A DNA stretch of 64,000 bases from Paracoccus maritimus. Its GTDB lineage: Bacteria; Pseudomonadota; Alphaproteobacteria; Rhodobacterales; Rhodobacteraceae. Below, in pieces: positions 4,078-46,707 of the stretch (positions are counted from its first letter, which is position 1; each line of letters begins with the position of its first letter). Made by a program: the position numbers and the translations under genes. Where the stretch lies: the NCBI RefSeq assembly GCF_025195095.1, contig NZ_JANAVZ010000010.1, positions 1-64,000 on the forward strand. The letters run 5' to 3'. The notes under the pieces are model-generated. The model was not told where the DNA came from, ran no database searches, and saw nothing but the letters and a program-made list of their open reading frames with translations.

Positions 4078-4090
4078 TCCGGTCTCCGGG

Positions 4091-4110: not shown

Positions 4111-4199
4111 GCATCGCTCTGCCGCGCCGTGAAGTGTAGATAATTCGGAGCAATAACATTGCCTTCTGATTGCGATCACCATCATATCCGGAGCGTCCC

Positions 4200-4796: not shown

Positions 4797-6810
4797 CGAT
4801 GGGACCGATGATGAGGATATCGCACCCGATCTGAGTTTCGACGGCGCCGAGGACATGTTACGCGCCTGGTCGCGCGGCATCCGGCCCGATCCCGATCTGA
4901 CAGTGTCCGAATGGGCGGACAAACACCGCTGGCTGTCCTCGCGGGCGGCAGCCGAGCCCGGCCGCTACCGCACGGCGCGCACGCCCTATCTGCGCGAGAT
5001 CATGGATACGCTCTCGCCCGGCCATCCGGCACAGCGGATCAGCTTCATGAAGGCCGCGCAGGTTGGCGCGACCGAAGCCGGCAACAACTGGATCGGCTTC
5101 GTCATCCACCATGCGCCCGGCCCGATGCTGGCGGTGCTGCCGACGGTCGAGATGGCCAAGCGCGCCTCGCGCGGGCGGCTCGATCCGCTGATTTCTGACA
5201 GCCCGGCCTTGCGAGAGAGGGTCAGCCCGGCGCGGTCCCGCGATGCCGGGAATTCGATGCTGTCCAAGGAATTCCCGGGCGGCATTCTGGTGCTGACCGG
5301 GGCCAACAGCGCGACAGGCCTGCGGTCCATGCCCGCGCGCTATCTGTTTCTGGACGAGATCGACGCCTATCCGCCCTCGGCCGACGAAGAGGGCGATCCG
5401 GTCACGCTGGCCGAGGCCCGCAGCACCACCTTCGCCCATCGCCGCAAGGTGTTTCTGGTCTCGACGCCGACCATCCGGGGGCTGAGCCGGATCGAGCAGG
5501 AGTTCGAGGCCTCCGATCAGCGGCGCTATTTCGTGCCCTGCCCGCATTGCGGCGCGATGCAATGGCTGGAATTCGAGCGCCTGCGCTGGGACAAGGGCCG
5601 CCCCGAGACCGCCGCCTATGCCTGCAACGCCTGCGATCAGCTGATCGCTGAGCATCACAAAACGGCGATGCTGGAGGCGGGCGAGTGGCGCGCAACGGCT
5701 GTTGCCGCCGATCCGCATCATGTCGGCTATCACCTCTCGGCGCTCTATTCGCCCATCGGCTGGAAGAGCTGGGAACAGATCGCGAGGGAATGGTTGGCGG
5801 CGCAGGGCAATGACGAGATGCTGCGCGCGGCGCGGAACACGCTTCTGGGCGAGACCTGGGTGGAACGCGGCGAGGCGCCGGAATGGCAGCGGTTGGCGGA
5901 TCGGCGCGAGGTGTTTGCGGCGCAGATCCCCGAAGGCGGACTGTTCCTGACCGCCGGGGCCGATATCCAGAAGGACCGGATCGAGGTCGATATCTGGGCC
6001 TGGGGGCGCGGGCTGCAAAGCTGGCTGGTCGATCACGTCGTCATCCCCGGCGGGCCGGACAGCCCGGCGGCATGGGCAGAGCTGACGAGGCTGCTGTCGC
6101 GCACATGGCAGCACGCCAATGGCGCGGTGATGCCGATTGCGAAGCTGGCCATCGATACCGGCTATGAGGCAGCAGCGGTCTATGCCTGGGCCCGGGCCCA
6201 AGGCTTCGATCAGGTCGTGCCGGTCAAGGGCCTCGAAGGTTTCAACCGGGCCACGCCGGTCTCGGGGCCGACCTTCGTCGATGCGACCGTGGGCGGCAAG
6301 CGGTTGCGTCGCGGCGCCCGGCTCTGGTCGGTGGCCACGGCCACCTTCAAGATCGAGACCTATCGTTTCCTGCGGCTGGAACGGCCGACGGATGAAGAAC
6401 GGGCGGCGGGCCAGCCCGATCCACCGAGCATGATCCATCTGCCGGACTGGGCCGACAGCGAATGGCTGAAGCAGCTGGTGGCCGAGCAGCTGGTTACGGT
6501 CCGCAACAAGCGCGGCTACGCCCGTCAGGAATGGCAGAAGCTGCGCGAGCGCAACGAGGCGCTCGACACCCGCGTCTATGCCCGCGCCGCCGCCTGGATC
6601 ATGGGCGCCGACCGCTGGGACGAGCGCATGTGGCGGCAGTTGGAGGACCAGGCCGGGGTGGTGACGGCAGTTCCGGATGTCGGCGGCGGCGGTGCCAACG
6701 CCGCAGGTGCACAAGCACCGACGCCTGACCCGCCCGCGCGGCAGGCGGGCGCCCCGCCAACCACGCCACGCCGCAAGCGGCAGAGTTACACACCGCGTTT
6801 CATGAGGTGA
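4741..6810 (+). CDS. Phage terminase large subunit (GpA family)
   Basis: A 689-aa packaging ATPase/nuclease of the lambda GpA family. The adenine-binding and Walker A-like region is near residues 100-115 (ISFMKAAQVGATEAGNN). Walker B is RYLFLDEIDAYPPS. A zinc-finger-like pair, CPHC and CNAC, sits near the middle. The C-terminal half (TAGADIQKDRIEVDIWAWGR, LAIDTGYEAAAVY) carries the acidic residues of the cos-cutting nuclease. The tail beyond ~650 is Pro/Ala-rich and low in complexity. The gene leads directly into gpW and portal genes, as in lambda. Confidence 0.93.
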   Translation: MSETSLPPSPISRSRLTHSDGTDDEDIAPDLSFDGAEDMLRAWSRGIRPDPDLTVSEWADKHRWLSSRAAAEPGRYRTARTPYLREIMDTLSPGHPAQRISFMKAAQVGATEAGNNWIGFVIHHAPGPMLAVLPTVEMAKRASRGRLDPLISDSPALRERVSPARSRDAGNSMLSKEFPGGILVLTGANSATGLRSMPARYLFLDEIDAYPPSADEEGDPVTLAEARSTTFAHRRKVFLVSTPTIRGLSRIEQEFEASDQRRYFVPCPHCGAMQWLEFERLRWDKGRPETAAYACNACDQLIAEHHKTAMLEAGEWRATAVAADPHHVGYHLSALYSPIGWKSWEQIAREWLAAQGNDEMLRAARNTLLGETWVERGEAPEWQRLADRREVFAAQIPEGGLFLTAGADIQKDRIEVDIWAWGRGLQSWLVDHVVIPGGPDSPAAWAELTRLLSRTWQHANGAVMPIAKLAIDTGYEAAAVYAWARAQGFDQVVPVKGLEGFNRATPVSGPTFVDATVGGKRLRRGARLWSVATATFKIETYRFLRLERPTDEERAAGQPDPPSMIHLPDWADSEWLKQLVAEQLVTVRNKRGYARQEWQKLRERNEALDTRVYARAAAWIMGADRWDERMWRQLEDQAGVVTAVPDVGGGGANAAGAQAPTPDPPARQAGAPPTTPRRKRQSYTPRFMR

Positions 6811-6813
6811 GAG

Positions 6814-7026
6814 ATGGACATCGACCGGATGCGGGCGCTTTTGACGGCGCTGCAGGAGGCCCGGTTCAGCGGGCTGCGCAGCGTCAGCTATGACGGCAAG
6901 ACCCTGACCTATGGATCGGACATGGAACTGGCAGCCGCGATCAGCGATCTGGAATCCCGGATCGCGCGGGCGTCTGGTGCGACCCGCCGTCGGCGCTGGG
7001 GCATTGTCGCGACGAAGGGGCTCTGA
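6814..7026 (+). CDS. Head-tail joining protein (gpW-like)
   Basis: A 70-aa protein between the terminase and portal genes, the position of lambda gpW. It begins MDIDRMRALLTALQEARFSG and has the short helix, beta-hairpin (RSVSYDGKTLTYGSD) and helix plan of gpW, with a basic C-terminus (TRRRRWG). It would sit at the portal ring and complete the head for tail attachment. The start follows a GAGGTGAGAG motif. Confidence 0.85.
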   Translation: MDIDRMRALLTALQEARFSGLRSVSYDGKTLTYGSDMELAAAISDLESRIARASGATRRRRWGIVATKGL

Positions 7027-7029
7027 GCC

Positions 7030-8529
7030 ATGGCATTCGACGGCATCCGCCAGCGCCTCGGCGCGATCATCGGCGGGTTCGACGCGGCGCAGTCCCATCG
7101 TCGGTTGCGGGGCTTCAGGGCCAGCCGCGCGCATGTCAACACGCTGATCGCGGGCGCGGGCGAGACCATCACGGCACGCGCCCGTTGGCTGGCGCGCAAC
7201 AATGGCTATGCCAGCGGCGCCGTGGAAGCTTTCGCCAGCAATGTCGTCGGTGACGGGATCAAACCGTCATCGTCGATTGCGAATGCGGCGCAGAAGGAGG
7301 CGCTGCAGAAGCTGTGGCTCGCCTGGACCGACGAGGCCGATGCCGAGGGTCTGACGGACTTTTATGGTCTCCAGCGCCGCGCCGCGCGGGAACTGTTTCT
7401 TGCGGGCGAGGTCTTCCTGCGGCTGCGCCCGCGACGCCCGGAGGACGGTCTGTCGGTGCCGCTGCAGCTGCAGATGCTGCCCTCGGAGATGCTGCCGATG
7501 GACCTGAACCGGGAATTGCCCGGCGGTGGGACCATCCGTCAGGGCATCGAATTCGACGGCATCGGGCGCCGCGTGGCCTATCACCTGCTGCGGCGCCATC
7601 CGGGCGATATGACCGATCCTGGGCTTGTGGGCGAAACGGTGCGCGTCCCCGCGCCCGAGATCGTCCATGTGCTGGACCCGGTCGAAGCCGGGCAACTGCG
7701 CGGCGTTTCCCGTTTCGCGCCTGCCATCGTGAAACTCTTCACGCTGGACCTCTATGACGATGCGGAGCTGGAGCGAAAGAAGACGGCGGCGATGTTCGCG
7801 ATGTTCATCACCTCGCCCGCCCCGGAAACACTGCTGGAACCGGCGGAGGAGGATCTGGAGGTCGAGCCCGGTCAGGTCGTCCGCCTCGATCCGGGCGAGG
7901 ATGTCTCGACACCCGCGACACCGGATTCCGGCTCGACCTATGAGCCGTTTCAATACCGGACAATGCTGCAGATCGCCGCCGCGCTGGGCATTCCCTATCC
8001 CTACCTGACCGGCGATGCCGCGCGCGGGAACTTTTCCAATACCCGCGTGGCGCTGCTGGATTTCCGCCGCCGGGTCTCGGCGATTCAGCACAGCGTGATC
8101 GTTCACCAGTTCTGCCGCCCGGTCTGGCAGCGCTGGCTGGATCTGGCCGTTCTGTCCGGCGCCGTCGATCTGCCGGGCTATGACCGCGACCGGCGCGCTT
8201 ACCAGTCCGTCAGTTGGCTGCCGACGCGCTGGGACTGGGTCGATCCGATGAAGGACGCCTCGGCCGAGATCCTGCAGATCGAAGCGGGTCTCAAATCCCG
8301 CAGTCAGGCCATCTCCGAACGCGGCTACGACGCCGAACAGGTCGACCGAGAAATCGCGGCGGAACGCAAGCGCGAAGCGGCGCTGGGCCTCGATTTCCGC
8401 CGCCCCGGATCGCCCGCGCAGGGCCCGAAGGGCGAGGCTGATGGCGATGCTGGGACCAAGGATGACCGCGACGACGATCAGGATGACGCCGACACCACCG
8501 ACGATGATGATGCCAAGGAGGACCGCTGA
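7030..8529 (+). CDS. Phage portal protein (lambda gpB family)
   Basis: A 499-aa portal subunit. The core motifs of lambda-type portals are visible: RWLARNNGYASGAVEAFASN near the start, ELFLAGEVFLRLRPR, the MLPSEMLPMDLNRE loop, and PYLTGDAARGNFSNTRVALL near residue 320. The protein forms the dodecameric channel at one head vertex through which DNA is packaged. The C-terminal ~60 residues are highly acidic (DDRDDDQDDADTTDDDDAKE). Its TGA overlaps the start of the next gene (ATGA-type), indicating coupled translation. Confidence 0.93.
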   Translation: MAFDGIRQRLGAIIGGFDAAQSHRRLRGFRASRAHVNTLIAGAGETITARARWLARNNGYASGAVEAFASNVVGDGIKPSSSIANAAQKEALQKLWLAWTDEADAEGLTDFYGLQRRAARELFLAGEVFLRLRPRRPEDGLSVPLQLQMLPSEMLPMDLNRELPGGGTIRQGIEFDGIGRRVAYHLLRRHPGDMTDPGLVGETVRVPAPEIVHVLDPVEAGQLRGVSRFAPAIVKLFTLDLYDDAELERKKTAAMFAMFITSPAPETLLEPAEEDLEVEPGQVVRLDPGEDVSTPATPDSGSTYEPFQYRTMLQIAAALGIPYPYLTGDAARGNFSNTRVALLDFRRRVSAIQHSVIVHQFCRPVWQRWLDLAVLSGAVDLPGYDRDRRAYQSVSWLPTRWDWVDPMKDASAEILQIEAGLKSRSQAISERGYDAEQVDREIAAERKREAALGLDFRRPGSPAQGPKGEADGDAGTKDDRDDDQDDADTTDDDDAKEDR

Positions 8530-9914
8530 TGCATCATGCCCAGATCGCCCAGCGCGCCTTCGATACGCCGCTGATGATCGCACCCGCCAAGGCGCTTGCC
8601 TTTCTCTCCGGCCTCGGATCCCGCATCACAGGGCAGAAGATCAGCTTTGAAGGTGTGACCGCGCCTGAACCCGATCTGTCGGCCGCGCGGCAAGCTGCCC
8701 GCCCCTCGCTGATCGGCGGCGATCTGGTCGGGCGGTATGGCGATGATGCTGATGCGCCCTTCCCGGTCATCGACGGTGTGGCGATGATCGCCATCGCCGG
8801 AACTCTGGTCCATCGCGGCGCCTGGATCGGCCAGAGTTCCGGCCTCACCTCCTATGAAGGCCTCGCCGCCCAGATCGACGCGGCGGTTCATGACTCCGCC
8901 ATTCGCGGCATCGCGCTGGAGATCGACAGTTTTGGCGGCGAGGTGGCCGGGGCCTTCGATCTCGCCGATCGCATCCGCGCCGCACGGAATACGAAGCCTG
9001 TCCATGCCTTTCTGGCCGAACATGCGCTCTCGGCGGGCTACGCACTGGCATCGCAGGCAGATCGCATCACCCTCCCCCGCACCGGGGCGGCGGGCAGCAT
9101 CGGGGTGATCACCATGCACACCGACATGTCCGGGGTGCTGGCGCAGAAGGGCGTCGCGGTGACGCTGATCCATGCCGGCGCGCGGAAAGCCGATGGCAAT
9201 CCTTATGCCGCCCTGCCCGAGGGCATTCGCGAGAGGCTGCAGGCCGAATTGGAGGATCTGCGCATCCTCTTCGCCGAGACGGTGGCGGCAGGACGTGGCA
9301 CAAAACTCAGCAAAGATGCGGCGCTGGCCACCGAAGCGGCTGTGTTTCGCGGCGCGGCTGCCGTCGAGGCCGGCCTCGCCGATGCCGTGGCCGATCCCCG
9401 TGCCGCCTTTCGCGCCTTCACTGAAAGCGTGAACCGCCCGGCTGTGCAGATCGGGCGGACACCAGCCACCCAGACCCTTTCTAACCCTCACCCTCAACAG
9501 GAGATGATCATGAGTGATCAGACGGATGAAGATGCCCGAACACCGGACCAACAAGCGCCGAACGCCGCCGCCCCCGGCGCAGAGGCCGCGCCGACGGCAC
9601 AGGAACCGGCGGCAGTGCCGCCCGCGCCCGGCACCGCAGCTGCTGGGGCCCCGACCGATGCTGACGCCATCCGCGCCGAAGCCGCCGAAGTGGCCTCGAT
9701 CTGCGCGCAGGCGGCAAAGCTGGGCGTCACCCTGGACGCGGCCGACGCGGTGCGGCGCGGCATAAGCCCCGACGCCCTGCGCGGCCAGATCCTCGACAGC
9801 CTCGCGGCCAAGAGCGACGCCAGCGGCATTCTGGCCACCGCGCCCGCGCCGACAAACAAGCCGAGCCCGCTCGTGGCTGCGGCCCGCAAATCCGCCGACA
9901 GCGCCCAGCGCTGA
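8529..9914 (+). CDS. Head maturation protease (S49/ClpP-like) fused to scaffold
   Basis: A 461-aa lambda C-type protein. Residues ~70-260 are an S49 (SppA-like) domain: VAMIAIAGTLVHRG, the oxyanion-type EIDSFGGEVAGAFDLAD, and the nucleophile Ser in EHALSAGYALASQ, followed by GAAGSIGVITMHTDMS. Residues after ~325 are Ala/Pro/Glu-rich and helical, as expected for a scaffold. An internal start for the scaffold alone is annotated separately. The protease would trim portal and scaffold during procapsid maturation. Confidence 0.9.
   Translation: MHHAQIAQRAFDTPLMIAPAKALAFLSGLGSRITGQKISFEGVTAPEPDLSAARQAARPSLIGGDLVGRYGDDADAPFPVIDGVAMIAIAGTLVHRGAWIGQSSGLTSYEGLAAQIDAAVHDSAIRGIALEIDSFGGEVAGAFDLADRIRAARNTKPVHAFLAEHALSAGYALASQADRITLPRTGAAGSIGVITMHTDMSGVLAQKGVAVTLIHAGARKADGNPYAALPEGIRERLQAELEDLRILFAETVAAGRGTKLSKDAALATEAAVFRGAAAVEAGLADAVADPRAAFRAFTESVNRPAVQIGRTPATQTLSNPHPQQEMIMSDQTDEDARTPDQQAPNAAAPGAEAAPTAQEPAAVPPAPGTAAAGAPTDADAIRAEAAEVASICAQAAKLGVTLDAADAVRRGISPDALRGQILDSLAAKSDASGILATAPAPTNKPSPLVAAARKSADSAQR
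9510..9914 (+). CDS. Nested scaffold protein (Nu3-like) from internal start
   Basis: Within the protease gene and in the same frame, an AGGAG motif at 9499-9503 lies six bases before ATG 9510 (MSDQTDEDARTPDQQ). The product would be 134 aa: an acidic, Pro/Ala-rich N-terminus followed by helices (DAIRAEAAEVASICAQAAKL) and a short basic C-terminus. Lambda makes its scaffold Nu3 from an in-frame internal start in gene C, so the arrangement is a direct parallel. Expression is inferred from the ribosome-binding site only. Confidence 0.65.
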   Translation: MSDQTDEDARTPDQQAPNAAAPGAEAAPTAQEPAAVPPAPGTAAAGAPTDADAIRAEAAEVASICAQAAKLGVTLDAADAVRRGISPDALRGQILDSLAAKSDASGILATAPAPTNKPSPLVAAARKSADSAQR

Positions 9915-12318: not shown

Positions 12319-12376
12319 GATCGTGGCAGACTGACTGCCACGCGACGAAAATCAAAGCCAGCCCATGGAGCATTGG

Positions 12377-13912
12377 ATGTACAAGTTGATGCCACTTGTC
12401 TTGATCGCAGCTCTTTGCCCTCCAACTGCCGCGACGTCACAAGACATCACCACTGACACGCCGTTTCAATCTTTACCCAGAATGTTTGGCGAGAGGATCG
12501 ACGAGCTACAAATCCACACAACGAACATGGGCATCCAGAATAAAGGAAATGAAGATTCGGGACTGTTTAGCGCGATGCCTTTTGACAGCGATATTCCCTC
12601 GAAAATCAATGCTTCAGAGTTTGCCCCGGTAATAGTTGCCGAAGGCGACATGATTCAGACAAAGGGGATTTTCCCCGGTCGCGAATTTTTCTACATTACG
12701 GACACTGGCAAGGACTCGCTGCGCAATGAATCTGGTAGAATATGGAGATTTGACCCTCGAACCAACGATATCGTGAAGTTCTTCGAGTCCTCCGATTTAA
12801 TAAATCCAAAGTGGATTTTCTATCATAGTCGCGAAGGTAGTCCGGACCTTCTTATCGTGTCAGACTTGGGAGAAGAACCTATACCGAGAGCTCCGGGAAC
12901 AGGGAGAGGTGCAAAAATTATTTCAATCCCGATTGTTGGTCAAGGGTTAGCAGGAGAGCCGACTATTCTCTTCGAAGGACCACCCTTTCGAAGCCCAGAA
13001 GGCGTAACGGTCATAGGCGAAACAGTTATTGTCTCTGACTGGGCTGCGGGTTCATTGACGACACGCCCGGAGGCCCCTGATGATGAATTCAATCAGGGTG
13101 CGGTATTCAAGCTTCCGCTTAATGGCGGAGAGCCAACAAAATTGTTCGAGGAACATAAGTGGGTGACGGTCATCGGAGCATGCCAATTTTTTGATGCAGA
13201 TGGCAAGAGATACCTAAGAATAATCGATATTGACGGCGGAAGAATTCAAGGGATTGACCCGACGTTCCCAAGATCTGGAACTGTGAAGTACTTTATTGCA
13301 GAAGTTCTGAGTGAAGATCCGCTTTTACTTGGCCCTTTGACGGAGGCCGTGATGCTCGAAGATACCCCCATAGATCTTCGAGAATTTGTTGTCGATGGGA
13401 GCGAGATCCAATCGGTGTCGTCATCAACACCGGCCCGGGTGCTTGGGCGCATCGACGACCAGTCACAAAGCAATACGAGCGAACTAATCAAGACTGTACG
13501 CAGTCCAAACTCGCTTGAGAGAGTAGACCTCATAATCGAATATAAGGACCCAGAAACAGCATCGAATCGCATCTTGACTGTCTCCATCCCAAAAGGTCAA
13601 CTTTTCGGCGCTGTACCACAAGACAACAAACACGCTGGGGCGCGGGTCGTTCAATTCTCAGGCGTGGAACGGAGCTTGAGCGCAAGCGCAGACGGGACCA
13701 GCCGCTCAGTATTTATCTTCCCGTCCATGGGCGGAATACCGGCGGTTCTATGGTCCGGCAATCCTTTCCAGCAACCAATGGGCGTACAATTTTCATCTGA
13801 TGGAGAAAGCATTTACGTAACCGACCAAGCAGCGGGAGAAAATGGGATGTCGGTACTGTTCAAAGTGCCCTTGCCAAGGACATCAAGCCTAGAGATAATG
13901 TTTGCTCCGTGA
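12377..13912 (+). CDS. Secreted beta-propeller-like protein (phage moron)
   Basis: A 511-aa protein with an N-terminal signal peptide (MYKLMPLVLIAALCPPTAATSQ) and probable cleavage after ATS. The body has repeated blade-like units: FFYITDTGKDSLRNESGRIW, DLLIVSDLGEE, TVIVSDWAAGSL and GESIYVTDQAAGEN, the last typical of NHL/SMP-30-type propellers. The start at 12377 has GGAG six bases upstream, better than 12365. The gene is far more AT-rich than the flanking structural genes and lies between head-tail and tail-terminator genes, so it is a late-acquired moron. Its function is unknown. A periplasmic or surface role in the lysogen is inferred from the signal peptide. Confidence 0.7.
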   Translation: MYKLMPLVLIAALCPPTAATSQDITTDTPFQSLPRMFGERIDELQIHTTNMGIQNKGNEDSGLFSAMPFDSDIPSKINASEFAPVIVAEGDMIQTKGIFPGREFFYITDTGKDSLRNESGRIWRFDPRTNDIVKFFESSDLINPKWIFYHSREGSPDLLIVSDLGEEPIPRAPGTGRGAKIISIPIVGQGLAGEPTILFEGPPFRSPEGVTVIGETVIVSDWAAGSLTTRPEAPDDEFNQGAVFKLPLNGGEPTKLFEEHKWVTVIGACQFFDADGKRYLRIIDIDGGRIQGIDPTFPRSGTVKYFIAEVLSEDPLLLGPLTEAVMLEDTPIDLREFVVDGSEIQSVSSSTPARVLGRIDDQSQSNTSELIKTVRSPNSLERVDLIIEYKDPETASNRILTVSIPKGQLFGAVPQDNKHAGARVVQFSGVERSLSASADGTSRSVFIFPSMGGIPAVLWSGNPFQQPMGVQFSSDGESIYVTDQAAGENGMSVLFKVPLPRTSSLEIMFAP

Positions 13913-13933
13913 ATTGAGTAGGGATCACACACG

Positions 13934-14314
13934 ATGTTTCTCTCCTCTATTTTGCTCTACGTTTCATCTATTGAAGAATCAGCCAAATTCTACAGCACCT
14001 TTCTTACCACTCCGCCACGTTTCGTTGAAGACGGTCCAGTGATTTATGCGATAGATGGGTTTGAACTAATTCTTCACCGAGAACCCGAGCCTGTTCCGGT
14101 TTCGCTATCCGGCTTTCGAAATGCTAAGTTTCGAGGTGCAGGTGTCATAATACACTTTTCGACACCAGACGTGATGCTTGAATATGATAAACTGGTCTCT
14201 GCAGGTGTGCATATATCAGCTCCGCCAACACTTACGAATTTTGGCAGGAGGCAGCTGTATTTTTACGACCCTGACGGATACAATATTTGCATTGAGCAGA
14301 ACTTGCGCAAATAG
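13934..14314 (+). CDS. VOC-family protein (glyoxalase/bleomycin-resistance fold)
   Basis: A 126-aa protein with the beta-alpha-beta-beta-beta plan of VOC proteins. It starts FLSSILLYVSSIEESAKFYS and ends QLYFYDPDGYNICIEQN, the usual C-terminal metal-binding strand with Asp-Pro-Asp-Gly and a final Glu. The first metal ligand position of typical glyoxalases, a His in the first strand, is not obvious. It follows the beta-propeller gene by 21 bases and shares its AT-rich composition, so both are probably one moron transcript. Substrate unknown. Confidence 0.7.
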   Translation: MFLSSILLYVSSIEESAKFYSTFLTTPPRFVEDGPVIYAIDGFELILHREPEPVPVSLSGFRNAKFRGAGVIIHFSTPDVMLEYDKLVSAGVHISAPPTLTNFGRRQLYFYDPDGYNICIEQNLRK

Positions 14315-27636: not shown

Positions 27637-27968
27637 ACGTCGGCCTGACGGCTTCTGATCCTCCCGGTGCGACCCATGATTTAACGATGTCAAAAAGCGG
27701 CAGGGATTCGCTGTGCGGGGATCGTCGCACAGATGTAACCGGGCTGTCTCGTCGGGAAATGGGCACAATTGTGCACCTCAAGATGAACAAAAATACAGAA
27801 CATTTAGCGAACATTTGATTTGAGCGATCCGGTCGGCCTCGTTAGATTGCTCGGCAGAAGGTCGCCCAGACTGGGTTCTGCCGGTCGCGCGAGACGCTTG
27901 CGGTATCTGGGAATACTGGGCAATCTGTGAAAGTGCTTCCGCTGGAAGCAAATACAAGGAGGACGCAA
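27637..27968. other. Intergenic region between lysis genes and cargo island
   Basis: No coding sequence with a ribosome-binding site is seen. The composition becomes less GC-rich from about 27670. The only strong structure is the large hairpin at 27852-27883. A strong ribosome-binding site (AAGGAGG) sits at its right end, before 27969. Confidence 0.55.
27852..27883. repeat. Large hairpin with arms CGGCAGAA / TTCTGCCG
   Basis: Outer arms CGGCAGAA (27852-27859) and TTCTGCCG (27876-27883) enclose inner arms CCCAG and CTGGG around a single A, with a five-base bulge on one side. The right arm with its flank, GGTTCTGCCGGTCGC, is identical to half of the 36-bp palindrome at 47587-47622. No T-tract follows, so a terminator is less likely than a protein-binding or mobile palindrome. 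Confidence 0.6.
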
Positions 27969-28004
27969 ATGAACCATACTATGGCGTCATCACGCCGTGG
28001 GTAG
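27969..28004 (+). other. Short leader ORF or frameshifted start of the DprA-like gene
   Basis: The best ribosome-binding site here, AAGGAGG, lies seven bases before the ATG at 27969. That ATG opens only 11 codons (MNHTMASSRRG) and stops at 28002-28004, overlapping the GTG start of the DprA-like frame at 27997. Either this is a coupled leader peptide, or a single indel near 27975-27981 has separated the true start from the body. Confidence 0.45.
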
Positions 28005-28890
28005 CTTGGCGTTTTCAAACAGCTACGGCCCTGCGATTGCGCCGATCTCTCCCCGCAAAGAGATGGGCGCCTATGAGGCCCTGTTCTTGGAACAGGGCGC
28101 AACCTTCAAGACGTTGGCCGAGCGCTTCGCGGCCGATCCTGATGCCCTGCCATCAGATTTTGTTGAACCGGCGAGAGCCGAGCAAGCCGCGCAGAAGGTG
28201 TTCGAGACGCTTCACAAAGCTGGCGTCGAGCAGTTCGGCATCCGCATCAATAAAGCTGGCGATTATCCGGAAAAACTGCGCCATGCGAAATATCCTGTCG
28301 AGCTTCTGTACTATCAAGGGACTTGGGAGCTCAGCGAGATGCGCAGCCTCGCCGTTGTCGGAAGCCGGAATCCCAGTGAAGACGGTGTGCTTCGAGCTGG
28401 TCGCTTGGCGCGCGAACTTGTCAGTCGTGGATTTGCTGTCGCGTCAGGGCTGGCCACAGGGATCGATGCAGCCGCACATACAGCTGCGATAGATGCCGGC
28501 GGTGTAACGATCGGCGTCATTGGCACCCCTTTGGGCGACTACTACCCCAAGGAAAACCGTGAGCTGCAGGATCTTATTTCCAGGGAACATCTACTGATCT
28601 CACAGATACCGGTCCTGCGTTACCAGGTTCAGCCCTTCCAACAGAAGCGGCACTATTTCCCGGAGCGAAATGCTACTATGAGCGCGCTGACCGAGGGTAC
28701 AATCATCGTTGAAGCCGGCGAGACCTCAGGCACGTTGACGCAAGCACGAGCTGCACTTTACCAAGGGCGCAAGCTCTTCATTCTGGAAAGCTGTTTTCAG
28801 AACTCTGCGATTACTTGGCCTGCCCGGTTCGAAGAGCAAGGCGCCGTTCGCGTCAAAAGCCCCGACGATATCTGGAAGGCGCTTGATTAA
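27997..28890 (+). CDS. DprA/SMF-family Rossmann protein
   Basis: A protein of ~297 aa with the SMF/DprA Rossmann core. Visible motifs are LAVVGSRNPSEDGVLRAGRL, VASGLATGIDAAAHTAAIDA, the nucleotide-pocket RHYFPERNATMSALTE, and IIVEAGETSGTLTQARAALY. The house-keeping DprA N-terminal SAM and C-terminal winged helix are not evident; residues 1-110 are a different helical region. House-keeping DprA binds ssDNA and loads RecA. Here the gene heads a cargo operon with a phosphoribosyltransferase gene one base downstream, so a nucleotide-sensing or defence role is more likely than transformation (inference). The GTG start is uncertain because the strong ribosome-binding site points to 27969. Confidence 0.78.
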   Translation: MGSLAFSNSYGPAIAPISPRKEMGAYEALFLEQGATFKTLAERFAADPDALPSDFVEPARAEQAAQKVFETLHKAGVEQFGIRINKAGDYPEKLRHAKYPVELLYYQGTWELSEMRSLAVVGSRNPSEDGVLRAGRLARELVSRGFAVASGLATGIDAAAHTAAIDAGGVTIGVIGTPLGDYYPKENRELQDLISREHLLISQIPVLRYQVQPFQQKRHYFPERNATMSALTEGTIIVEAGETSGTLTQARAALYQGRKLFILESCFQNSAITWPARFEEQGAVRVKSPDDIWKALD

Positions 28891-29508
28891 ATGCGCCTTT
28901 CCCGTATCGACGACGCGAGCAGGTCTGTTCATCATCATCTGACAGAAGATGATGAATGCTACTATTTCCTCGAATATACTTCTGGCCGGGATTACAAATT
29001 TTCAAAGGCAAACAATGCCATATCCAACCTGAAGAAGAAGCCCAGCAATCGTAATCGGCCAGACTACAAGTACAAGCTTGAAGTAATTCGGGCAGCATCA
29101 AATGAGTTCCGAGGCGCTCTGAATCCTCAATGGCTTCAAAAGGCTACTCTCGTGCCAATTCCCGGCTCGAAAGCAAAAGACCACCCTGATTACGACGACA
29201 GGATGGAGCAAGTTTGCATGGGGATTAGAGCCGGGCTGGACGTTCGAAATCTGGTCGTGCAGCGTGAATCAACTGTCGCGTCACATGAAGCGGATGGCGG
29301 ACCACGCGTGACTGTTGATGAACTGCTGGATCTCTATCAGATAGACGAAAATCTCGCGCACCCTGCCCCAGATAGCATCGCAATTTTTGATGATGTCCTG
29401 ACTGCTGGCGTACATTTTCGAGCCATGAAAAACACGCTTGCCCACCGATTTCCAGGAACACCGATTGTCGGCATGTTCATCGCACGCCGCATTTTCCCGC
29501 CCGATTGA
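28891..29508 (+). CDS. Phosphoribosyltransferase-fold protein (ComF-like)
   Basis: A 205-aa protein starting immediately after the DprA-like stop codon. The PRPP-binding signature is APDSIAIFDDVLTAGVHFRA (about residues 160-180), with the two acidic residues and small loop of type I PRTases. Upstream, ATLVPIPGSKAKDHPDYDDR resembles the substrate side of ComF-type proteins. The zinc finger of ComF is missing. ComF and DprA both belong to competence, but the tight pairing of these divergent versions in an accessory island suggests a dedicated two-protein module, acting perhaps on nucleotides or DNA ends. Its substrate is unknown. Confidence 0.75.
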   Translation: MRLSRIDDASRSVHHHLTEDDECYYFLEYTSGRDYKFSKANNAISNLKKKPSNRNRPDYKYKLEVIRAASNEFRGALNPQWLQKATLVPIPGSKAKDHPDYDDRMEQVCMGIRAGLDVRNLVVQRESTVASHEADGGPRVTVDELLDLYQIDENLAHPAPDSIAIFDDVLTAGVHFRAMKNTLAHRFPGTPIVGMFIARRIFPPD

Positions 29509-29593
29509 CTGCCGCACATCAAAGCCGCCAACCGTCTGGCTTTGGCGGTGTCACCGTGTATCTTCTGAAGCAGACTGACCCGCAGGTTCCGAT

Positions 29594-30370
29594 ATGGCCG
29601 AAACACAGATCGAATGGACCGATGCAACTTGGAATCCCGTCGCAGGGTGCAACATCCTCAGCGAAGGATGCAAAAACTGCTATGCGATGGAGATGGCGCG
29701 CCGCTTGGAGGCGATGGGCGTCGAGAAATACCAAGGTCTGACGCGCCGGAGCGGCAAGCGCGTCATCTGGAATGGCGTCGTCCGTGAGGATCGTGCCGCC
29801 TTGGAAATTCCCTTGCGTTGGCGCAAGCCACGCAAGGTTTTCGTCAACTCCATGAGCGATCTGTTCCATGACGCTGTAAGCGACGACTTTATCCTGGCGG
29901 TTTGGGAGGTCATGCGTCGGACGCCGCACCATCACTATCAGATTCTGACAAAACGCCCGGACCGGATGCTCGCGGTCGTATCTTCGTTAATTGAGGTAGT
30001 TTTGCCCAACGTCTGGCTGGGGACGAGTGTTGAGTCTGCGTCCGTACGGCACCGTATCGATGATCTTAAAAAAATCCCTGCAGCTATTCGGTTTATTTCC
30101 TTCGAACCTCTCATTGGCCCCGTGGGCGAAGTTAATCTCAATGGTATCCATTGGGCCATCGTCGGTGGCGAAAGTGGCCGCGCCGCACGCCCGCTGCGCG
30201 AAGAATGGATTGATGATATTCACGATCAGTGTGCAAAGTATGATACAGCCTTTTTCTTCAAGCAGTGGGGCACGTGGGGTGCGGACAACAAGAAGAGATC
30301 CAAGAAAGCCAACGGCAGGGAATACAGAGGACGCACCTGGGACGAAATGCCTGCCTCTGCACCAGCTTGA
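29594..30370 (+). CDS. DUF5131 / phage Gp37-Gp68 family three-Cys-motif protein
   Basis: A 258-aa protein. The N-terminus TQIEWTDATWNPVAGCNILS followed by EGCKNCYAM gives the CX6CX2C motif of this family, a likely [4Fe-4S] ligand set as in radical-SAM-like enzymes. Further family motifs are RVIWNGVVREDR, VFVNSMSDLFHDAV, YQILTKRPDRM, NVWLGTSVE, FISFEPLIGPVG and WAIVGGESGR. The C-terminal FFFKQWGTWG is also typical. It lies 15 bases before tcmP, its usual neighbour, so the two probably act together. Reaction unknown; a nucleic-acid or nucleotide modification is often suspected. Confidence 0.88.
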   Translation: MAETQIEWTDATWNPVAGCNILSEGCKNCYAMEMARRLEAMGVEKYQGLTRRSGKRVIWNGVVREDRAALEIPLRWRKPRKVFVNSMSDLFHDAVSDDFILAVWEVMRRTPHHHYQILTKRPDRMLAVVSSLIEVVLPNVWLGTSVESASVRHRIDDLKKIPAAIRFISFEPLIGPVGEVNLNGIHWAIVGGESGRAARPLREEWIDDIHDQCAKYDTAFFFKQWGTWGADNKKRSKKANGREYRGRTWDEMPASAPA

Positions 30371-30385
30371 GTCTCGGGAATAGTC

Positions 30386-31633
30386 ATGGCCGAGAAGCCT
30401 TATGCCTGGCTAACCGGAGCTGAACTCGACAACCACACAAGGCGCAAGCACAAGGTAATTCGCGAGTATTTTTCGGACTACCTCCGGATCCGCTGCCAGC
30501 ACCCCCAGCAAAGCGTATTTAGGCTGGCCGTCGTTGACGGCTTTTCAGGGGGCGGCAGGTACAAGGACGGTGAGCCGGGATCGCCCATCATCTTTCTTGA
30601 GGTGCTGAAGGAGGCCGTTCATGCTTTCAACATAGAGCGCGCGGCCAACGGTCTCAAGGCGCTGGATCTGGATTGTCTCTTGATTTTCAACGATGCCAAG
30701 CGGGATGTCGTTGAAATGCTCAAGACAAATGTTGCTCCACTTGAAGCTGATATCAAAAGCACGTCGCCGCGCCTCCACGTTCGTATTGAGTATCTCAATC
30801 ATAAATTTGCCAAGGCCTATCCGATCATCCGGCAACAGCTGGCCAACAGTCCGTATCAGAACGTCATTTTCAATCTCGACCAGTGTGGGACCAGCCATGT
30901 CTATCAGTCGACCATTGTCGACATCATGCGCTCTTTCGCATCTGCCGAGATCTTCTTCACCTTTATGATCAGTTCGCTGATCGCTTTTTTGCAGAAACAG
31001 GACGAGGAACGGCTTCTGCGGCAACTTCGACCGCTTGGTTTAAGCAGGGCGGATATAGGAGATTTGGGCGGGCTCAAGTCGAAGCGTGAATGGTTAGGAA
31101 CAGCCGAGAGAATCGTTTTCCAGACCTATCAGGCCTGTGCGCCCTACGTCAGCCCATTCTCGATCAACAATCCAGAGGGCTGGGAGTACTGGCTGATCCA
31201 TTTCGCTAACTCTCATAGGGCACGCGAAGCCTATAATAACGTCCTGCATGCAAACAGCACCGCACAAGCGCATTTCGGGCGTTCCGGCTTGAAGATGCTG
31301 ACATACAATCCTGAGCATGAAGGTAAGCTCTATTTATTCACCGAAGATGGCCGGGAAGATGCGCGCAATCAACTGTTGCTGGATATTCCGGGCCGCGTTT
31401 CTCTGTTCGGGGATATACTGCCTGTTCAGTTATTCAGGGAAGGAATCTACAATGAGACGCCCGCTCACTCAGATGACGTGAACTATGCCTTGGTAGAAAA
31501 CCCCGACCTTGAGGTGATCACCCCGCGAGGGGGAAAACGGCGAGCAGCGGGGCAAATCAAGGCTAATGATTTCATCAAGCTGAAGCCACAACCGAGCTTC
31601 TTTCCGCTTTGGCAGCCAATGAAGAGGTTATGA
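30386..31633 (+). CDS. tcmP: Three-Cys-motif partner protein TcmP
   Basis: A 415-aa protein with the TcmP N-terminal pattern: HTRRKHKVIREYFSDYL, then RLAVVDGFSGGGRYKDGEPG, a Rossmann/methyltransferase-like glycine-rich turn, and GSPIIFLEVLKEA. A second motif, VIFNLDQCGTSHVYQSTIVD, fits the motif IV region of a methyltransferase-like fold. The family is named for its conserved position beside the DUF5131 three-Cys protein, as seen here. The biochemical role is not known to me. Start at 30386 is the only ATG upstream of the conserved N-terminus. Confidence 0.85.
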   Translation: MAEKPYAWLTGAELDNHTRRKHKVIREYFSDYLRIRCQHPQQSVFRLAVVDGFSGGGRYKDGEPGSPIIFLEVLKEAVHAFNIERAANGLKALDLDCLLIFNDAKRDVVEMLKTNVAPLEADIKSTSPRLHVRIEYLNHKFAKAYPIIRQQLANSPYQNVIFNLDQCGTSHVYQSTIVDIMRSFASAEIFFTFMISSLIAFLQKQDEERLLRQLRPLGLSRADIGDLGGLKSKREWLGTAERIVFQTYQACAPYVSPFSINNPEGWEYWLIHFANSHRAREAYNNVLHANSTAQAHFGRSGLKMLTYNPEHEGKLYLFTEDGREDARNQLLLDIPGRVSLFGDILPVQLFREGIYNETPAHSDDVNYALVENPDLEVITPRGGKRRAAGQIKANDFIKLKPQPSFFPLWQPMKRL

Positions 31634-31767
31634 GCTCTGCCGTGCGCAAAGAGGTGGTCGCGCCCACTTTAGCAACGAATCTTAGGATCAGGGTGAGGTC
31701 GGCAGCAGCAGTGTGAGCTTACAAGAGCCCAAGACTTCATCGCCATCCGCTTAGCCTCAAGTGAAAT

Positions 31768-33000
31768 ATGGAACCGAAGCGAAGCATGCAGATATCTCTG
31801 GTAAACTCAACGTCGACGGCGCGCAAACTTTCAGCGCTCATCCGCAAGCATGACAAAATTTCGGTCGCGGTTGCTTGGGGCGGTATCACGGCCGTCGCAG
31901 AGGAACTCCTCGCCCATAGCGACAAGTTTGAGTCAGTTCTTCTGGGTGTCGACTTCTCTGCAACGGAGGCCGCGCTCATCGATCGCCTCGTCGATGTTCC
32001 TAACGCCTTTGTCGCAAGGAATCGACCGGGCTGCTTCCATCCTAAGATATTTTACTTTGAGACGGGGCAAAAGGCTGAAGCAATCGTCGGCAGTGCCAAT
32101 TTCACGAGGGGCGGGTTGGGTCCGAATTTCGAGGTTGGCGTCCACGCGAAGGGGGCGAGAGACAATCCCTTTTTCGTACAGGTACGCAACCAAATCAACG
32201 CCTACGCGCCGCTTCGCCTCACCATTACGTCCGTGCTTGCCGATAGCTATCGTCGTCAGGCCAAGGCAGCTGCAGGCAAGTCGAGGCCGAAGAACCCCAT
32301 CCTGCCGGATGATCGAAAAGGGTGGACGCGGGTTAACTCGCCGCTCGCTACAATGGAATGGTCTGAGTTCGTTAAGTTCGCCCGTCGCGATGAGTATCAT
32401 GACTTCAAGAAGCGCATGCTCCTCATACGCTCCATTCAACAGATCTTATCGCGCACTCCCTCCTTCGCGAATGTGTCGGCTGCTGAGGCCAAGGGTATCG
32501 CGGGTGTGCTCGGCAAAAATGAAGCCGAGGCAGAGGGCTTGACCAATCTTGATTGGGGCTGGTTCGGCTCGATGGGAGGAGCCGGTACATTTGCTAAACT
32601 GATCGGCATCAAAGACGGCGCTCTTGCTGCCGCGCTAGATGCGATACCCCGCCGTGGTAACGTCACCGAGATCCAATTCAACGACTATATCGTGGCCTTC
32701 ACAGCCGCATTTTCGAATTCCTCACGGGTGGCGCGGCTGGCACCGGCAACCCGGTTGCTCGCCATGAAGCGCCCTGATGTTTTCGTTTGTGTAAACGGCG
32801 GCAACAGGTCGGGCCTCGCCAAGGCGCTCAACTTCGCGCCGACAACGATCAAGCTCGAAAACTATTGGGACCGCGTGATCGAGCCTATTAGGCAAGCACC
32901 TTGGTATACAGTCGAGCGGCCAGCCGGGCGTGACACCGAGCTTTGGGACGCCCGCGTCGCCATGCTTGACGCCATCTATTATAAGCCGACCAATGAATGA
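31768..33000 (+). CDS. Phospholipase-D-like nuclease domain protein
   Basis: A 410-aa protein, with 31786 an alternative start. The first ~150 residues form one PLD half: KISVAVAWGGITAVAEELLA, then the HKD signature CFHPKIFYFETGQKAEAIVG followed by SANFTRGGL. Only one HKD motif is visible, so a dimer would be needed for an active site, as in bacterial PLD nucleases. The C-terminal ~250 residues are a helical domain of unknown type (RVARLAPATRLLAMKRPDVF, FVCVNGGNRSGLAKALNF). Such one-HKD proteins are common in restriction and defence loci. It is the last gene before the tRNA remnant. Confidence 0.78.
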   Translation: MEPKRSMQISLVNSTSTARKLSALIRKHDKISVAVAWGGITAVAEELLAHSDKFESVLLGVDFSATEAALIDRLVDVPNAFVARNRPGCFHPKIFYFETGQKAEAIVGSANFTRGGLGPNFEVGVHAKGARDNPFFVQVRNQINAYAPLRLTITSVLADSYRRQAKAAAGKSRPKNPILPDDRKGWTRVNSPLATMEWSEFVKFARRDEYHDFKKRMLLIRSIQQILSRTPSFANVSAAEAKGIAGVLGKNEAEAEGLTNLDWGWFGSMGGAGTFAKLIGIKDGALAAALDAIPRRGNVTEIQFNDYIVAFTAAFSNSSRVARLAPATRLLAMKRPDVFVCVNGGNRSGLAKALNFAPTTIKLENYWDRVIEPIRQAPWYTVERPAGRDTELWDARVAMLDAIYYKPTNE

Positions 33001-33058: not shown

Positions 33059-33125
33059 TAAACTGGGGATGTGGATGTCTGACTGTTTCCGTCAGCATAC
33101 AAGTATTTGATCTTGCTTGATTTTT

Positions 33126-33170
33126 TGGTTGCGGGGGTAGGATTTGAACCTACGACCTTCAGGTTATGAG
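33126..33170 (-). other. tRNA-Met(CAU) 3'-half, attachment-site remnant
   Basis: Read on the minus strand, 33170-33126 gives the anticodon loop CTCATAA, the 3' anticodon-stem side CCTGA, the T arm with GGTTCAAATCC and an acceptor end finishing CCA. This is the 3' half of an elongator tRNA-Met. The 5' half is absent: sequence beyond 33172 does not pair as an anticodon stem or D arm. A 3' tRNA half of this size is the usual core left by integration at a tRNA gene. Confidence 0.8.
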
Positions 33171-33459
33171 CCGATCAGAAGGGAAAATCGGAAACCTAAC
33201 GAATTCAGCATCTTACAAAGTAACCGTTTGATTTTTCGCGATTTCCATTCCGGCGTTCGACCGCATTGAGCGGCTTTTGACAGCACAACCTGCACGAAAA
33301 CTGCAGCCAAAGGTTGATGTGGCGTTGAGGTGAGCAATTTTCAGTACCATCCATTTCGCTATATGATCACGCAGAACGTGATCCCGCACGAACGCAGCGA
33401 CGAAAGTGCAAGTTTGACTTGACAAAATTTCGTCCGGCTCTCCATCGATTTGGCTAAGA
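33171..33459. other. Intergenic segment right of the tRNA remnant
   Basis: No gene is seen. It contains the right copy of the GTTGATGTGGCGTTGA repeat (33313-33330) and a perfect inverted repeat GATCACG-N5-CGTGATC at 33365-33383. Together with the tRNA half these form a compact cluster of possible recombinase or operator sites. Confidence 0.45.
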
Positions 33460-45360: not shown

Positions 45361-45435
45361 TCCTGGCGCTGATGTATGACTTGCCATACGCGCGAGGCTG
45401 AGCCTCATGTGGGATGCAAGAAGGAGGCGCTGGGC

Positions 45436-46707
45436 ATGGTGAAGCGATTGAGGTTAAACGAAAAAACGGTGCGGGAGGCGGCACCGGAACCGGGCCGGGA
45501 CTATCAGATTTTTGACAGCGAGGTGCGGGGGTTTGCCATCTGCATCTACCGTTCCGGCAACCGGGCCTTCACGCTGGATTACCGCCATGCCGGACGCCAG
45601 CGGCGGATGACGTTGGGGCGCTGGCCGGAATGGTCGACGGCTGCCGCGCGGGAACGGGCCAAGGAGTTGCGCCGCGATATCGATGCCGGGGGCGATCCGC
45701 TGGGCGCGAAGAAGGACGGGCGTGAGGCGCCCCGGTTCAAGGATCTGGTTGACCGCTATACCGAGGTGCATCTGCCCAATCTGGCGAAGACCAATGCGTC
45801 CGATCAGCGCTCCATGCTGACCAAGCTGGTCGGGCCGGACTGGAACAACAGGCTCATCACGGAAATCACGCCCTATGATGTCGAAAAGCTGCTGAACCGG
45901 ATCGCCGAGGGCCGGTGTCGTCCCCATAAGGCAAAGCCGAACAACCGGGCAAGGAAGCTGCAGGGCGCAAAGCCGACGCCGGTGCGCGCCAACCGCGTCG
46001 GTGAGGTGCTTCGAAAGATGTTCACCTATGCGCAGGGCTGGGGCTGGCGGGAGGATAACCCGGCCTCTGGCTTCCGCCGCCGGATCGAGAATCCGCGCGA
46101 GCGGTTTCTGTCGCAGGACGAAATCCGGAAGCTTGCTACCGCGCTGGACGCGGCCGAGGATCGGCGCGCAGCGGATATCATCCGGCTCTGTATGCTGACC
46201 GGCGCGCGGGTCGGCGAGGTCCGGCAGGCGCGGTTCGAGCATTTCAACCTTGAACATCTGAGCTGGTCAAAGCCCGCCAGCATGACCAAGCAGCGCAGGA
46301 TTCACCGGCTGCCGATCTCGGACGAAGCCGCAGCCATTGTTCGCCAAAGGCAACTGCTGGTGCCGCGCGGCTGCTCATACCTGTTTCCGGGCGATGTGCC
46401 CGGCCAGCCTGTGAAGGAAATCCGCCGCTTCTGGCATCAGATCCAGAAGCAGGTGAACATTCCCGATGTCCGCATTCACGACTTGCGCCACACCTTCGCC
46501 TCGCTACTGGTCAGTGGCGGTGCGTCACTGGAAATGATCGGAAAGCTCTTGGGTCACAGCCAGACGCAGACCACTGCGCGCTATGCCCATCTGATGGACT
46601 CGCCGCTGCGCGCCGGGGTCGATGCCGTGGCCAGCGCCTTCCGGCCAAAGCCGGTGCTGGTGCATGATGCCGGGGCGCAAGATGATCAGGCGCGCAAAAG
46701 CGCCTGA
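45436..46707 (+). CDS. Tyrosine-type integrase (DUF4102 arm-binding N-terminus)
   Basis: A 423-aa site-specific recombinase. The start at 45436 has AGGAGG nine bases upstream. The N-terminal ~95 residues are a DUF4102-like domain (YQIFDSEVRGFAICIYRSGN, RRMTLGRWPEWSTAAARERA). The core-binding helices follow. The catalytic set appears complete: Arg in LTGARVGEVRQ, His-x-x-Arg in RIHDLRHTFASLL, His in KLLGHSQTQTTARY, with the nucleophilic Tyr in ARYAHL. It is the likely recombinase of the phage early half. A 30-bp direct repeat flanks it and the next gene. Confidence 0.92.
   Translation: MVKRLRLNEKTVREAAPEPGRDYQIFDSEVRGFAICIYRSGNRAFTLDYRHAGRQRRMTLGRWPEWSTAAARERAKELRRDIDAGGDPLGAKKDGREAPRFKDLVDRYTEVHLPNLAKTNASDQRSMLTKLVGPDWNNRLITEITPYDVEKLLNRIAEGRCRPHKAKPNNRARKLQGAKPTPVRANRVGEVLRKMFTYAQGWGWREDNPASGFRRRIENPRERFLSQDEIRKLATALDAAEDRRAADIIRLCMLTGARVGEVRQARFEHFNLEHLSWSKPASMTKQRRIHRLPISDEAAAIVRQRQLLVPRGCSYLFPGDVPGQPVKEIRRFWHQIQKQVNIPDVRIHDLRHTFASLLVSGGASLEMIGKLLGHSQTQTTARYAHLMDSPLRAGVDAVASAFRPKPVLVHDAGAQDDQARKSA

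What the first reader, a model, noticed from the sequence alone, without database searches (positions are those of the whole stretch)
27969..33000. Five-gene DprA-PRTase-DUF5131-TcmP-PLD cargo block, a candidate undescribed defence or nucleotide-conflict system
Seen: a DprA/SMF-like gene and a PRPP-motif PRTase gene abut without a gap; a CX6CX2C DUF5131 gene is followed 15 bases later by tcmP; a one-HKD PLD-like gene closes the run. All are on one strand, between phage lysis genes and a tRNA-Met attachment remnant. Known: phage and element ends beside att sites often carry defence genes; DUF5131 and TcmP are recurrent neighbours of unknown chemistry; PLD-like nucleases occur in defence. Inference: the DprA-like protein senses ssDNA or a nucleotide, the PRTase and three-Cys protein make or modify a nucleotide or base, and the PLD domain is the effector. 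I cannot tell whether this is one system or two or three adjacent ones.
Basis: partly seen in the sequence, partly recalled or inferred. Interest (0 to 1): 0.75.

Follow-up and report, generated by a model that had tools for sequence, protein, structure and literature searches.

The report
Prophage cargo: three stacked conflict modules
A bacterial prophage carries, beside its attachment site, a known phage-defence pair, a widespread gene pair of unknown function and a lone nuclease gene; they look like separate modules rather than one new system, and DNA-damage control sites near the first two in many relatives suggest they respond to DNA damage.

Summary
The five genes are real, but they are three independent modules, not one undescribed system. 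(1) 27997-29508 is ShosTA (DprA-like ShosA plus PRTase ShosT), a described toxin-antitoxin phage-defence system. (2) 29594-31633 is the DUF5131-TcmP pair, a PADLOC candidate (PDC-M30/M41): TcmP lies within 1 kb of DUF5131 at 32 of 34 places in 390 genomes, but one of five strong ShosT matches (this one) shares a genome with it. (3) 31786-33000 is a one-HKD PLD-family nuclease; none of 39 relatives' loci holds the other four genes. All are low-GC cargo between phage lysis genes and a true tRNA-Met attachment remnant. The new point is regulation. An exact alphaproteobacterial LexA (SOS) box starts 199 bp before ShosA, of the same form as boxes at this genome's lexA and recA. Such boxes precede 9 of 13 testable ShosA genes (this one included) and 9 of 29 other DUF5131-TcmP pairs (controls: 8 of 334 other genes; 0 of 37 PLD relatives). 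Best reading: an SOS-induced abortive-infection pair, an SOS-associated putative radical-SAM/methyltransferase pair, and a stand-alone nuclease. LexA control is sequence inference only, and close ShosA relatives lack the box.

The parts
27798..27812 (+). LexA (SOS) box GAACATTTAGCGAAC upstream of ShosTA
   Evidence: exact GAACN7GAAC, one of 6 in the window (shuffles mean 1.66); boxes of the same form start 34 bp before own lexA (GAACATTAACGGAAC) and 76-100 bp before own recA (GAACAAGAAGTGAAC); exact boxes upstream of 9 of 13 testable ShosA genes, this one included
27997..28890 (+). ShosA, DprA/SMF-like, 297 aa from GTG (275 aa from ATG 28063)
   Evidence: PF02481 1e-54; PADLOC ShosA 6.9e-93
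28891..29508 (+). ShosT, phosphoribosyltransferase-like toxin, 205 aa; PRPP-loop-like motif IAIFDDVLTAG (DD at 29389)
   Evidence: PADLOC ShosT 4.5e-48; 7 of 7 other matches (34-59% identical) lie directly after a ShosA match, one of them partial; motif position, motif meaning recalled
29594..30370 (+). DUF5131 (Gp37/Gp68-like), 258 aa, C-X6-C-X2-C
   Evidence: PF07505 1.4e-102; PADLOC PDC-M41B 3.2e-103 and PDC-M30B 1.3e-97; NCBIfam radical SAM mobile pair A 5.5e-23, below its cut-off
30386..31633 (+). TcmP, 415 aa; DGFSGGGRY..G..GSP motif; C-terminal GMT-like wHTH (subthreshold)
   Evidence: TIGR04474 2.3e-59; PADLOC PDC-M30A 1.5e-22; PF22560 in 36 of 36 aligned members at E up to 1, 0.011 in this one
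31786..33000 (+). one-HKD PLD-family nuclease, 404 aa, with an unassigned C-terminal domain (ATRLLAMKRPDxFVCVN)
   Evidence: H85-P-K87, G102-S103, N105, E116 invariant in the 40 aligned sequences; profile hit to PDB 7clg ('Putative helicase') 1.4e-6; restriction endonucleases 2c1l and 4rct only 0.05-0.08
33125..33172 (-). tRNA-Met(CAT) 3' remnant, prophage attachment site
   Evidence: 48 of 48 bases identical to the tRNA-Met stretch on contig C15
26545..27222 (+). phage lysis-type peptidase/endolysin, left boundary of the cargo
   Evidence: phrog_17373 9.3e-104, phrog_894 endolysin 5.8e-27

Best explanation
The region is a cargo slot of a GTA-related prophage holding three separately mobile modules. 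Module 1 is ShosTA: ShosA (DprA-like) holds ShosT (PRTase) inactive and releases it when phage or damaged DNA is sensed; ShosT then stops growth, aborting infection. A LexA box upstream would raise expression during the SOS response. Module 2 is DUF5131-TcmP: a putative radical-SAM-type iron-sulphur enzyme and a putative SAM-dependent methyltransferase with a DNA-binding wHTH, acting together on damaged or foreign nucleic acid and, in many relatives, also behind a LexA box. Module 3 is a stand-alone PLD-type nuclease. Shown here: family identities, gene order, independence of the modules in the samples searched, and enrichment of exact LexA boxes. Inferred: LexA binding, all chemistry, and the defence outcome in this host.
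For: Identity. A DprA-PRTase pair gave resistance to T7 and lambda in E. coli (PMC9122126, passages). Pairing and independence: TcmP within 1 kb of DUF5131 at 32 of 34 places in 390 genomes; 4 of 5 strong ShosT genomes have no TcmP/DUF5131 match. PLD gene: none of the other four in 39 of 39 loci (24 with both 8-kb flanks, the rest shorter; two marginal matches). Some of its neighbours (110 ORFs scanned) are defence types: UvrD/GajB helicase 4, N6 methylase 4, McrBC 1, a CBASS-type cyclase (McrC also). Of 8 plasmid pair-2 regions read, 3 have defence-type neighbours and one Y-family and error-prone polymerase genes. SOS boxes: ShosA 9 of 13 (shuffle mean 0.161, max 3 of 2000); Burkholderia phage Mana CTGTN8ACAG 99 bp before its DprA gene; DUF5131-TcmP 9 of 29 (shuffle mean 0.45, max 3 of 1000) against 8 of 334 other genes in the same loci, Fisher p 5.9e-7; PLD relatives 0 of 37.
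Against: ShosA misses include close relatives: L211-L213, 68-73% identical, and L180 have no exact or one-mismatch box; counting other DprA types and L217 as well, the figure is 9 of 21. Exact gamma/beta boxes are absent at two gamma plasmid ShosTA loci and in phage Riah. 20 of 29 DUF5131-TcmP pairs have no exact box; plasmid alpha pairs 1 of 4, and none of 4 beta/gamma pairs has CTGTN8ACAG. The window's own pair 2 has no box of its own, and the window holds 6 such boxes. Boxes in related loci are not independent (about 5 groups for the pairs, about 6 lineages for ShosA). DUF5131 lacks the canonical CX3CX2C motif. A second DUF5131-TcmP pair in this genome (contig C7) is also followed by a one-HKD PLD gene, so a loose pair-PLD link is not excluded, though the other 28 fetched pair loci showed none.
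Confidence: 0.72

Rival explanations
1. One five-gene system: DprA-like sensor, PRTase and DUF5131/TcmP as nucleotide or base modifiers, PLD as effector.
For: Same strand, compact, shared low GC. Own genome has a second DUF5131-TcmP-PLD run.
Against: None of 39 loci of PLD relatives holds the other genes; DUF5131/TcmP in 1 of 5 strong ShosT genomes; PLD-like ORF in only 1 of 29 other pair loci; PLD relatives lack SOS boxes, 0 of 37.
Confidence: 0.04
2. DUF5131-TcmP is an SOS-regulated DNA-repair or damage-tolerance pair carried by mobile elements, and is in defence catalogues only by guilt by association.
For: LexA boxes at 9 of 29 pairs; a Burkholderia plasmid copy beside a DNA polymerase Y-family gene and an error-prone DNA polymerase gene; distant radical-SAM resemblance.
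Against: 3 of 8 plasmid regions read have defence-type neighbours; of 112 pair-locus neighbour ORFs scanned, 3 match Hachiman-type helicases and 2 each type I methyltransferase and specificity profiles; PDC-M30 was reported in 32 of 100 P. aeruginosa strains, 68.8% of them phage resistant, a correlation only (PMC10855318, passages).
Confidence: 0.4
3. DUF5131-TcmP plus the PLD nuclease is a three-gene unit (modification pair and nuclease, like a restriction-modification arrangement), with ShosTA merely adjacent.
For: Two such runs in one genome with diverged proteins (window; L150).
Against: 28 of 29 other pair loci have no HKD-like ORF in the DNA fetched, up to about 6 kb each side; the plasmid copies of both PLD types that I read have no DUF5131/TcmP annotated nearby.
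Confidence: 0.08
4. The block is decaying or silent prophage remnant DNA without function.
For: A tRNA-Met remnant with similar stretches elsewhere in the genome; the contig starts at window base 1, so the left part of the prophage is not seen.
Against: All five ORFs are uninterrupted, and those aligned keep the residues conserved in their families.
Confidence: 0.08

Closest known systems
ShosTA / DprA-PRTase defence system (Rousset 2022, PMC9122126, passages read)
   Same: adjacent DprA-like and PRTase genes carried by a prophage; PADLOC ShosA/ShosT profiles match
   Different: alphaproteobacterial host (inferred from relatives); upstream LexA box; no toxicity or protection tested here
PADLOC PDC-M30 (and PDC-M41), phage-defence candidates
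   Same: TcmP (best match M30A) and DUF5131 (best match M41B, then M30B) as an adjacent pair
   Different: I found no experimental test in print (searches, open-licence PMC only); here the pair sits behind ShosTA, and many relatives have a LexA box
NCBIfam radical SAM mobile pair protein A (TIGR04471)
   Same: distant sequence similarity of DUF5131 (5.5e-23); a two-gene mobile family by its name
   Different: score 81.6 against cut-off 355; CX6CX2C rather than CX3CX2C
PLD-type restriction nucleases (NgoFVII; 2c1l, BfiI by recall) and DISARM DrmC
   Same: one HKD motif (HxK...GSxN...E) per chain
   Different: scores below family cut-offs; different conserved C-terminal domain; DISARM partner genes were not looked for beyond the five genes

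Membership tests
ShosTA | DprA-like ShosA directly followed by PRTase ShosT | tested here: met
   PADLOC 6.9e-93 and 4.5e-48, abutting ORFs
ShosTA | PRPP-loop motif in the PRTase | tested here: met
   IAIFDDVLTAG, residues 163-173; motif recalled, and no Pfam PRTase profile matched
ShosTA | ShosT toxic, ShosA neutralises; protects against phage | not testable with these tools
   needs bench work
PDC-M30 | TcmP-family gene adjacent to DUF5131-family gene | tested here: met
   1.5e-22 and 1.3e-97; 15-base gap
PDC-M30 | anti-phage activity | not testable with these tools
   only a strain-panel correlation seen
Radical SAM superfamily (DUF5131) | canonical CX3CX2C cluster motif | tested here: not met
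   CX6CX2C in 28 of 29 pair-locus DUF5131 ORFs, one shortened ORF without it, CX3CX2C in none
Radical SAM superfamily (DUF5131) | radical-SAM fold / Fe-S cluster | tested here: inconclusive
   TIGR04471 below cut-off; no PDB relative by profile; structure prediction unavailable
SAM-dependent methyltransferase (TcmP) | Rossmann MTase motif I and fold | tested here: inconclusive
   DGFxGxGxY and GSP invariant among 36 close relatives, read by eye; no Pfam MTase hit up to E=1
LexA/SOS regulon | GAACN7GAAC or GTTCN7GTTC box upstream | tested here: met
   27798-27812; same form at own lexA and recA; consensus recalled
LexA/SOS regulon | LexA binding and damage induction | not testable with these tools
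   bench only
DISARM DrmC | score above DrmC cut-off | tested here: not met
   23.3 against 133 bits

The most novel reading that the evidence does not exclude
ShosTA and DUF5131-TcmP belong to a mobile, LexA-controlled conflict regulon: host SOS induction, whether from phage attack, phage DNA processing or prophage induction, switches on an abortive-infection pair and a two-enzyme (radical-SAM-like plus methyltransferase-like) nucleic-acid repair or modification pair. DUF5131-TcmP, a very common uncharacterised pair, would then be a DNA-damage enzyme couple rather than a generic defence gene.
Probability: 0.35. Interest if true: 0.75.

Novelty: new member of a known kind. Interest (0 to 1): 0.45.

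Why it matters
It removes a would-be five-gene system from the list of unknowns and gives a concrete, cheap test for two real unknowns: whether ShosTA is switched on by the SOS response, and what DUF5131-TcmP does. A shared LexA box would place both in DNA-damage signalling and fits a published remark that phage single-stranded-DNA-binding protein activates ShosTA among other systems (PMC10732053, passages).

Tried and rejected
Rejected: one five-gene system; DISARM DrmC membership of the PLD gene (below cut-off); SOS control of the PLD family (0 of 37). No support either way for a terminator between the modules: 6 terminator-like sites (one at 29545) against 6.7 in shuffles, 5 promoter-like against 3.5 (sd 2.0).

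Led nowhere: viral-contig scans with the PLD, TcmP and ShosT proteins, close relatives only; PDB searches with single proteins and with the TcmP and DUF5131 profiles. The ShosT profile in 390 genomes mostly rings on other PRTases (383 of 390 at 1e-5, list cut), so only the five matches below 1e-30 were used.

Rows dropped: of 39 PLD loci, L048 and L049 (marginal) were left out of the neighbour and box counts, leaving 37; near-duplicates L038 and L047 were left out of the neighbour list, and 110 of its 133 ORFs were scanned. The family tallies show only the first 25 families. Of 31 DUF5131-TcmP places outside the window, 29 were fetched; G348 and G308, near contig ends, were not. 112 of 160 listed neighbour ORFs were scanned. 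One pair (G232) has an 855-base gap with an ORF between. For ShosA boxes, L179, L183-L185 and the convergent DprA copies in L207-L209 are other DprA types without boxes, and L217 had no anchor and no box: with these eight the count is 9 of 21. L215 and L216 lack upstream sequence. The pair test used a wider region for three TcmP-first loci, and its shuffles are first-order Markov sequences.
Full report
Observation. The five ORFs exist as described, on one strand, at 53-57% GC against about 65% in the phage genes to the left. Phage structural genes (terminase, portal, major head protein, tape measure, tail) and a lysis-type peptidase precede them; a stretch of the tail region matches GTA-like Rhodobacter phages such as RcKvothe at 66.9% DNA identity over 76% of the query. 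The remnant at 33125-33172 carries the 3' part of a tRNA-Met(CAT) gene, identical over 48 bases to the tRNA-Met stretch at the end of contig C15. Similar stretches lie at C1:83234 and C13:19411 (81%, no tRNA gene found) and at C1:100981 (89%, with an intact tRNA-Met).

Identity. PADLOC profiles name genes 1 and 2 ShosA (6.9e-93) and ShosT (4.5e-48), genes 3 and 4 the candidate pair PDC-M30/M41, and give gene 5 only weak PLD matches. Pfam and NCBIfam agree where they match: DNA_processg_A, DUF5131, TcmP, and subthreshold PLDc_2, NgoFVII and DrmC; the PRTase has no Pfam or NCBIfam match. A DprA-PRTase pair from a P2-like phage protected E. coli against T7 and lambda, and the authors suggested that DprA senses phage DNA and activates the PRTase (PMC9122126, passages).

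One system or several. In 390 genomes of the order, TcmP matched at 34 places in 33 genomes and DUF5131 at 50 places in 43 genomes, two of these being pieces of one broken gene. 32 of 34 TcmP places lie within 1 kb of DUF5131 on the same strand, DUF5131 first in 29 and TcmP first in 3; G166 and G387 are the exceptions, and G232 has an 855-base gap. Of the five strong ShosT genomes only the window's own has any DUF5131 or TcmP match. The PLD protein has at least 367 homologues (capped list) and 39 loci in named genomes; none of the 39 has a ShosA, ShosT, DUF5131 or TcmP match in the DNA held. 24 of them have both 8-kb flanks; the rest are shorter, and two (L048, L049) are marginal matches. In the order it is rare: 2 of 390 genomes, own included. 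Eight annotated plasmid copies and 110 neighbour ORFs show plasmid upkeep genes and, for some, defence families (UvrD/GajB helicases 4, N6 methylases 4, McrBC 1, a CBASS-type cyclase). So I read three modules.

A loose end. The genome's second DUF5131-TcmP pair (contig C7) is followed by another one-HKD PLD protein, similar only in its N-terminal half. No HKD-like ORF was found in the other 28 fetched pair loci, and three annotated plasmid relatives of that protein have no DUF5131 or TcmP nearby. This may be chance in a defence-rich neighbourhood, or a weak association.

Regulation. Alphaproteobacterial LexA boxes (GAACN7GAAC, either strand; consensus recalled) occur six times in the window, against 1.66 in shuffles, 1 of 100 of which reached six. 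One (27798-27812, GAACATTTAGCGAAC) starts 199 bp before ShosA's GTG. Boxes of this form start 34 bp before this genome's lexA start (GAACATTAACGGAAC) and 76 or 100 bp before recA (GAACAAGAAGTGAAC). Among ShosA genes of the same type with readable upstream DNA, 9 of 13 have an exact box within 350 bp of the anchor (shuffled mean 0.161, maximum 3 in 2000): the window, L181, L182, L205-L209 and L214. L206-L209 are all Rhizobiaceae and L206 and L207 share a box sequence, so about six lineages are independent. The four misses are L180 and L211-L213, the last three 68-73% identical to the window's ShosA. Adding the other DprA types and L217 gives 9 of 21. Burkholderia phage Mana has the beta/gamma-type box CTGTN8ACAG 99 bp before its DprA gene, while two gamma plasmid copies and phage Riah have no exact one. 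For DUF5131-TcmP, 9 of 29 loci have a box near the first gene against 8 of 334 other genes in the same loci (Fisher p 5.9e-7; shuffle mean 0.45, maximum 3 in 1000); the box sequences fall into about five groups. On plasmids 1 of 4 alpha pairs has one and 0 of 4 beta/gamma pairs has CTGTN8ACAG. The PLD family has 0 of 37, a useful negative. In the open-licence PMC library I found no paper holding DprA, PRTase and LexA together, nor LexA, DprA, phosphoribosyltransferase and toxin-antitoxin. [quoted passage not shown] Rousset 2022 has no SOS or LexA in its main text.

Mechanism. ShosTA: PRTase toxin with a PRPP-loop-like motif, DprA-like antitoxin and sensor; growth arrest on activation (published hypothesis and inference). 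DUF5131: 28 of 29 pair-locus copies keep CX6CX2C; invariant GGESG, LTKR and EPLxG motifs with a subthreshold match to a radical-SAM family make a radical-SAM-like enzyme my best guess, but the canonical motif is absent. TcmP: DGFxGxGxY, GSP and NLDQCG, invariant among 36 close relatives, suggest a SAM methyltransferase; the C7 paralogue keeps them only in part. All 36 match a GMT-like wHTH at E up to 1, and no Pfam methyltransferase family matched. Together they could repair or modify nucleic acid. The Burkholderia copy beside Y-family and error-prone polymerase genes and the LexA boxes favour a DNA-damage role. Neighbouring DncV-like cyclase, AbiE and methyltransferase/helicase genes in 3 of 8 plasmid regions, the listing of TcmP SMa2243 with the phage-defence gene hna SMa2245 in one expression table (PMC12445080, passages) and a strain-panel correlation for PDC-M30 (PMC10855318, passages) favour defence. 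I cannot separate these. Gene 5: HKD nuclease domain with profile similarity to a solved 'Putative helicase' (7clg, 1.4e-6) and only weakly to two restriction endonucleases.

Verdict. The finding is a correct observation of prophage cargo whose first module is known and whose second is catalogued. The LexA-box pattern is the part worth following.

Noticed in passing
window 12365-14314: Two low-GC genes (a 515-aa protein with no Pfam or NCBIfam match and a glyoxalase-family protein) sit inside the phage structural cassette, like a second cargo insertion.
   Followed up: partly
L150 (own contig C7) 4041-7594: Second DUF5131-TcmP pair in the same genome, also followed by a one-HKD PLD protein.
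   Followed up: partly
L207, L208, L209: Rhizobiaceae plasmids carry two DprA-PRTase pairs facing each other, one of a different DprA type without a LexA box, next to a serine protease or patatin gene.
   Followed up: partly
L193 (Burkholderia glumae plasmid) 1-8879: TcmP, DUF5131 and a second TcmP beside DNA polymerase Y-family and error-prone polymerase genes and a radical SAM protein.
   Followed up: no
window 27969-28004: An 11-codon ORF (ATG shortly after AAGGAGG) overlaps the start of ShosA in another frame; possible leader or just a chance ORF.
   Followed up: no
window 33125-33172; G000 C1:83234, C1:100981, C13:19411, C15:22268: Repeated tRNA-Met-like stretches may mean several elements stacked at tRNA-Met; to the right lie two large ORFs that look like metal-transport P-type ATPases (by eye) and a tyrosine integrase (45376-46707).
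   Followed up: partly
window 2061-3317: Histidine kinase gene (GAF, HisKA, HATPase) on the minus strand left of the phage terminase gene.
   Followed up: no
window 46828, 47545, 52233, 54159, 55342: Five further exact LexA-type boxes right of the prophage (six in the window against 1.66 in shuffles); their genes were not examined.
   Followed up: no
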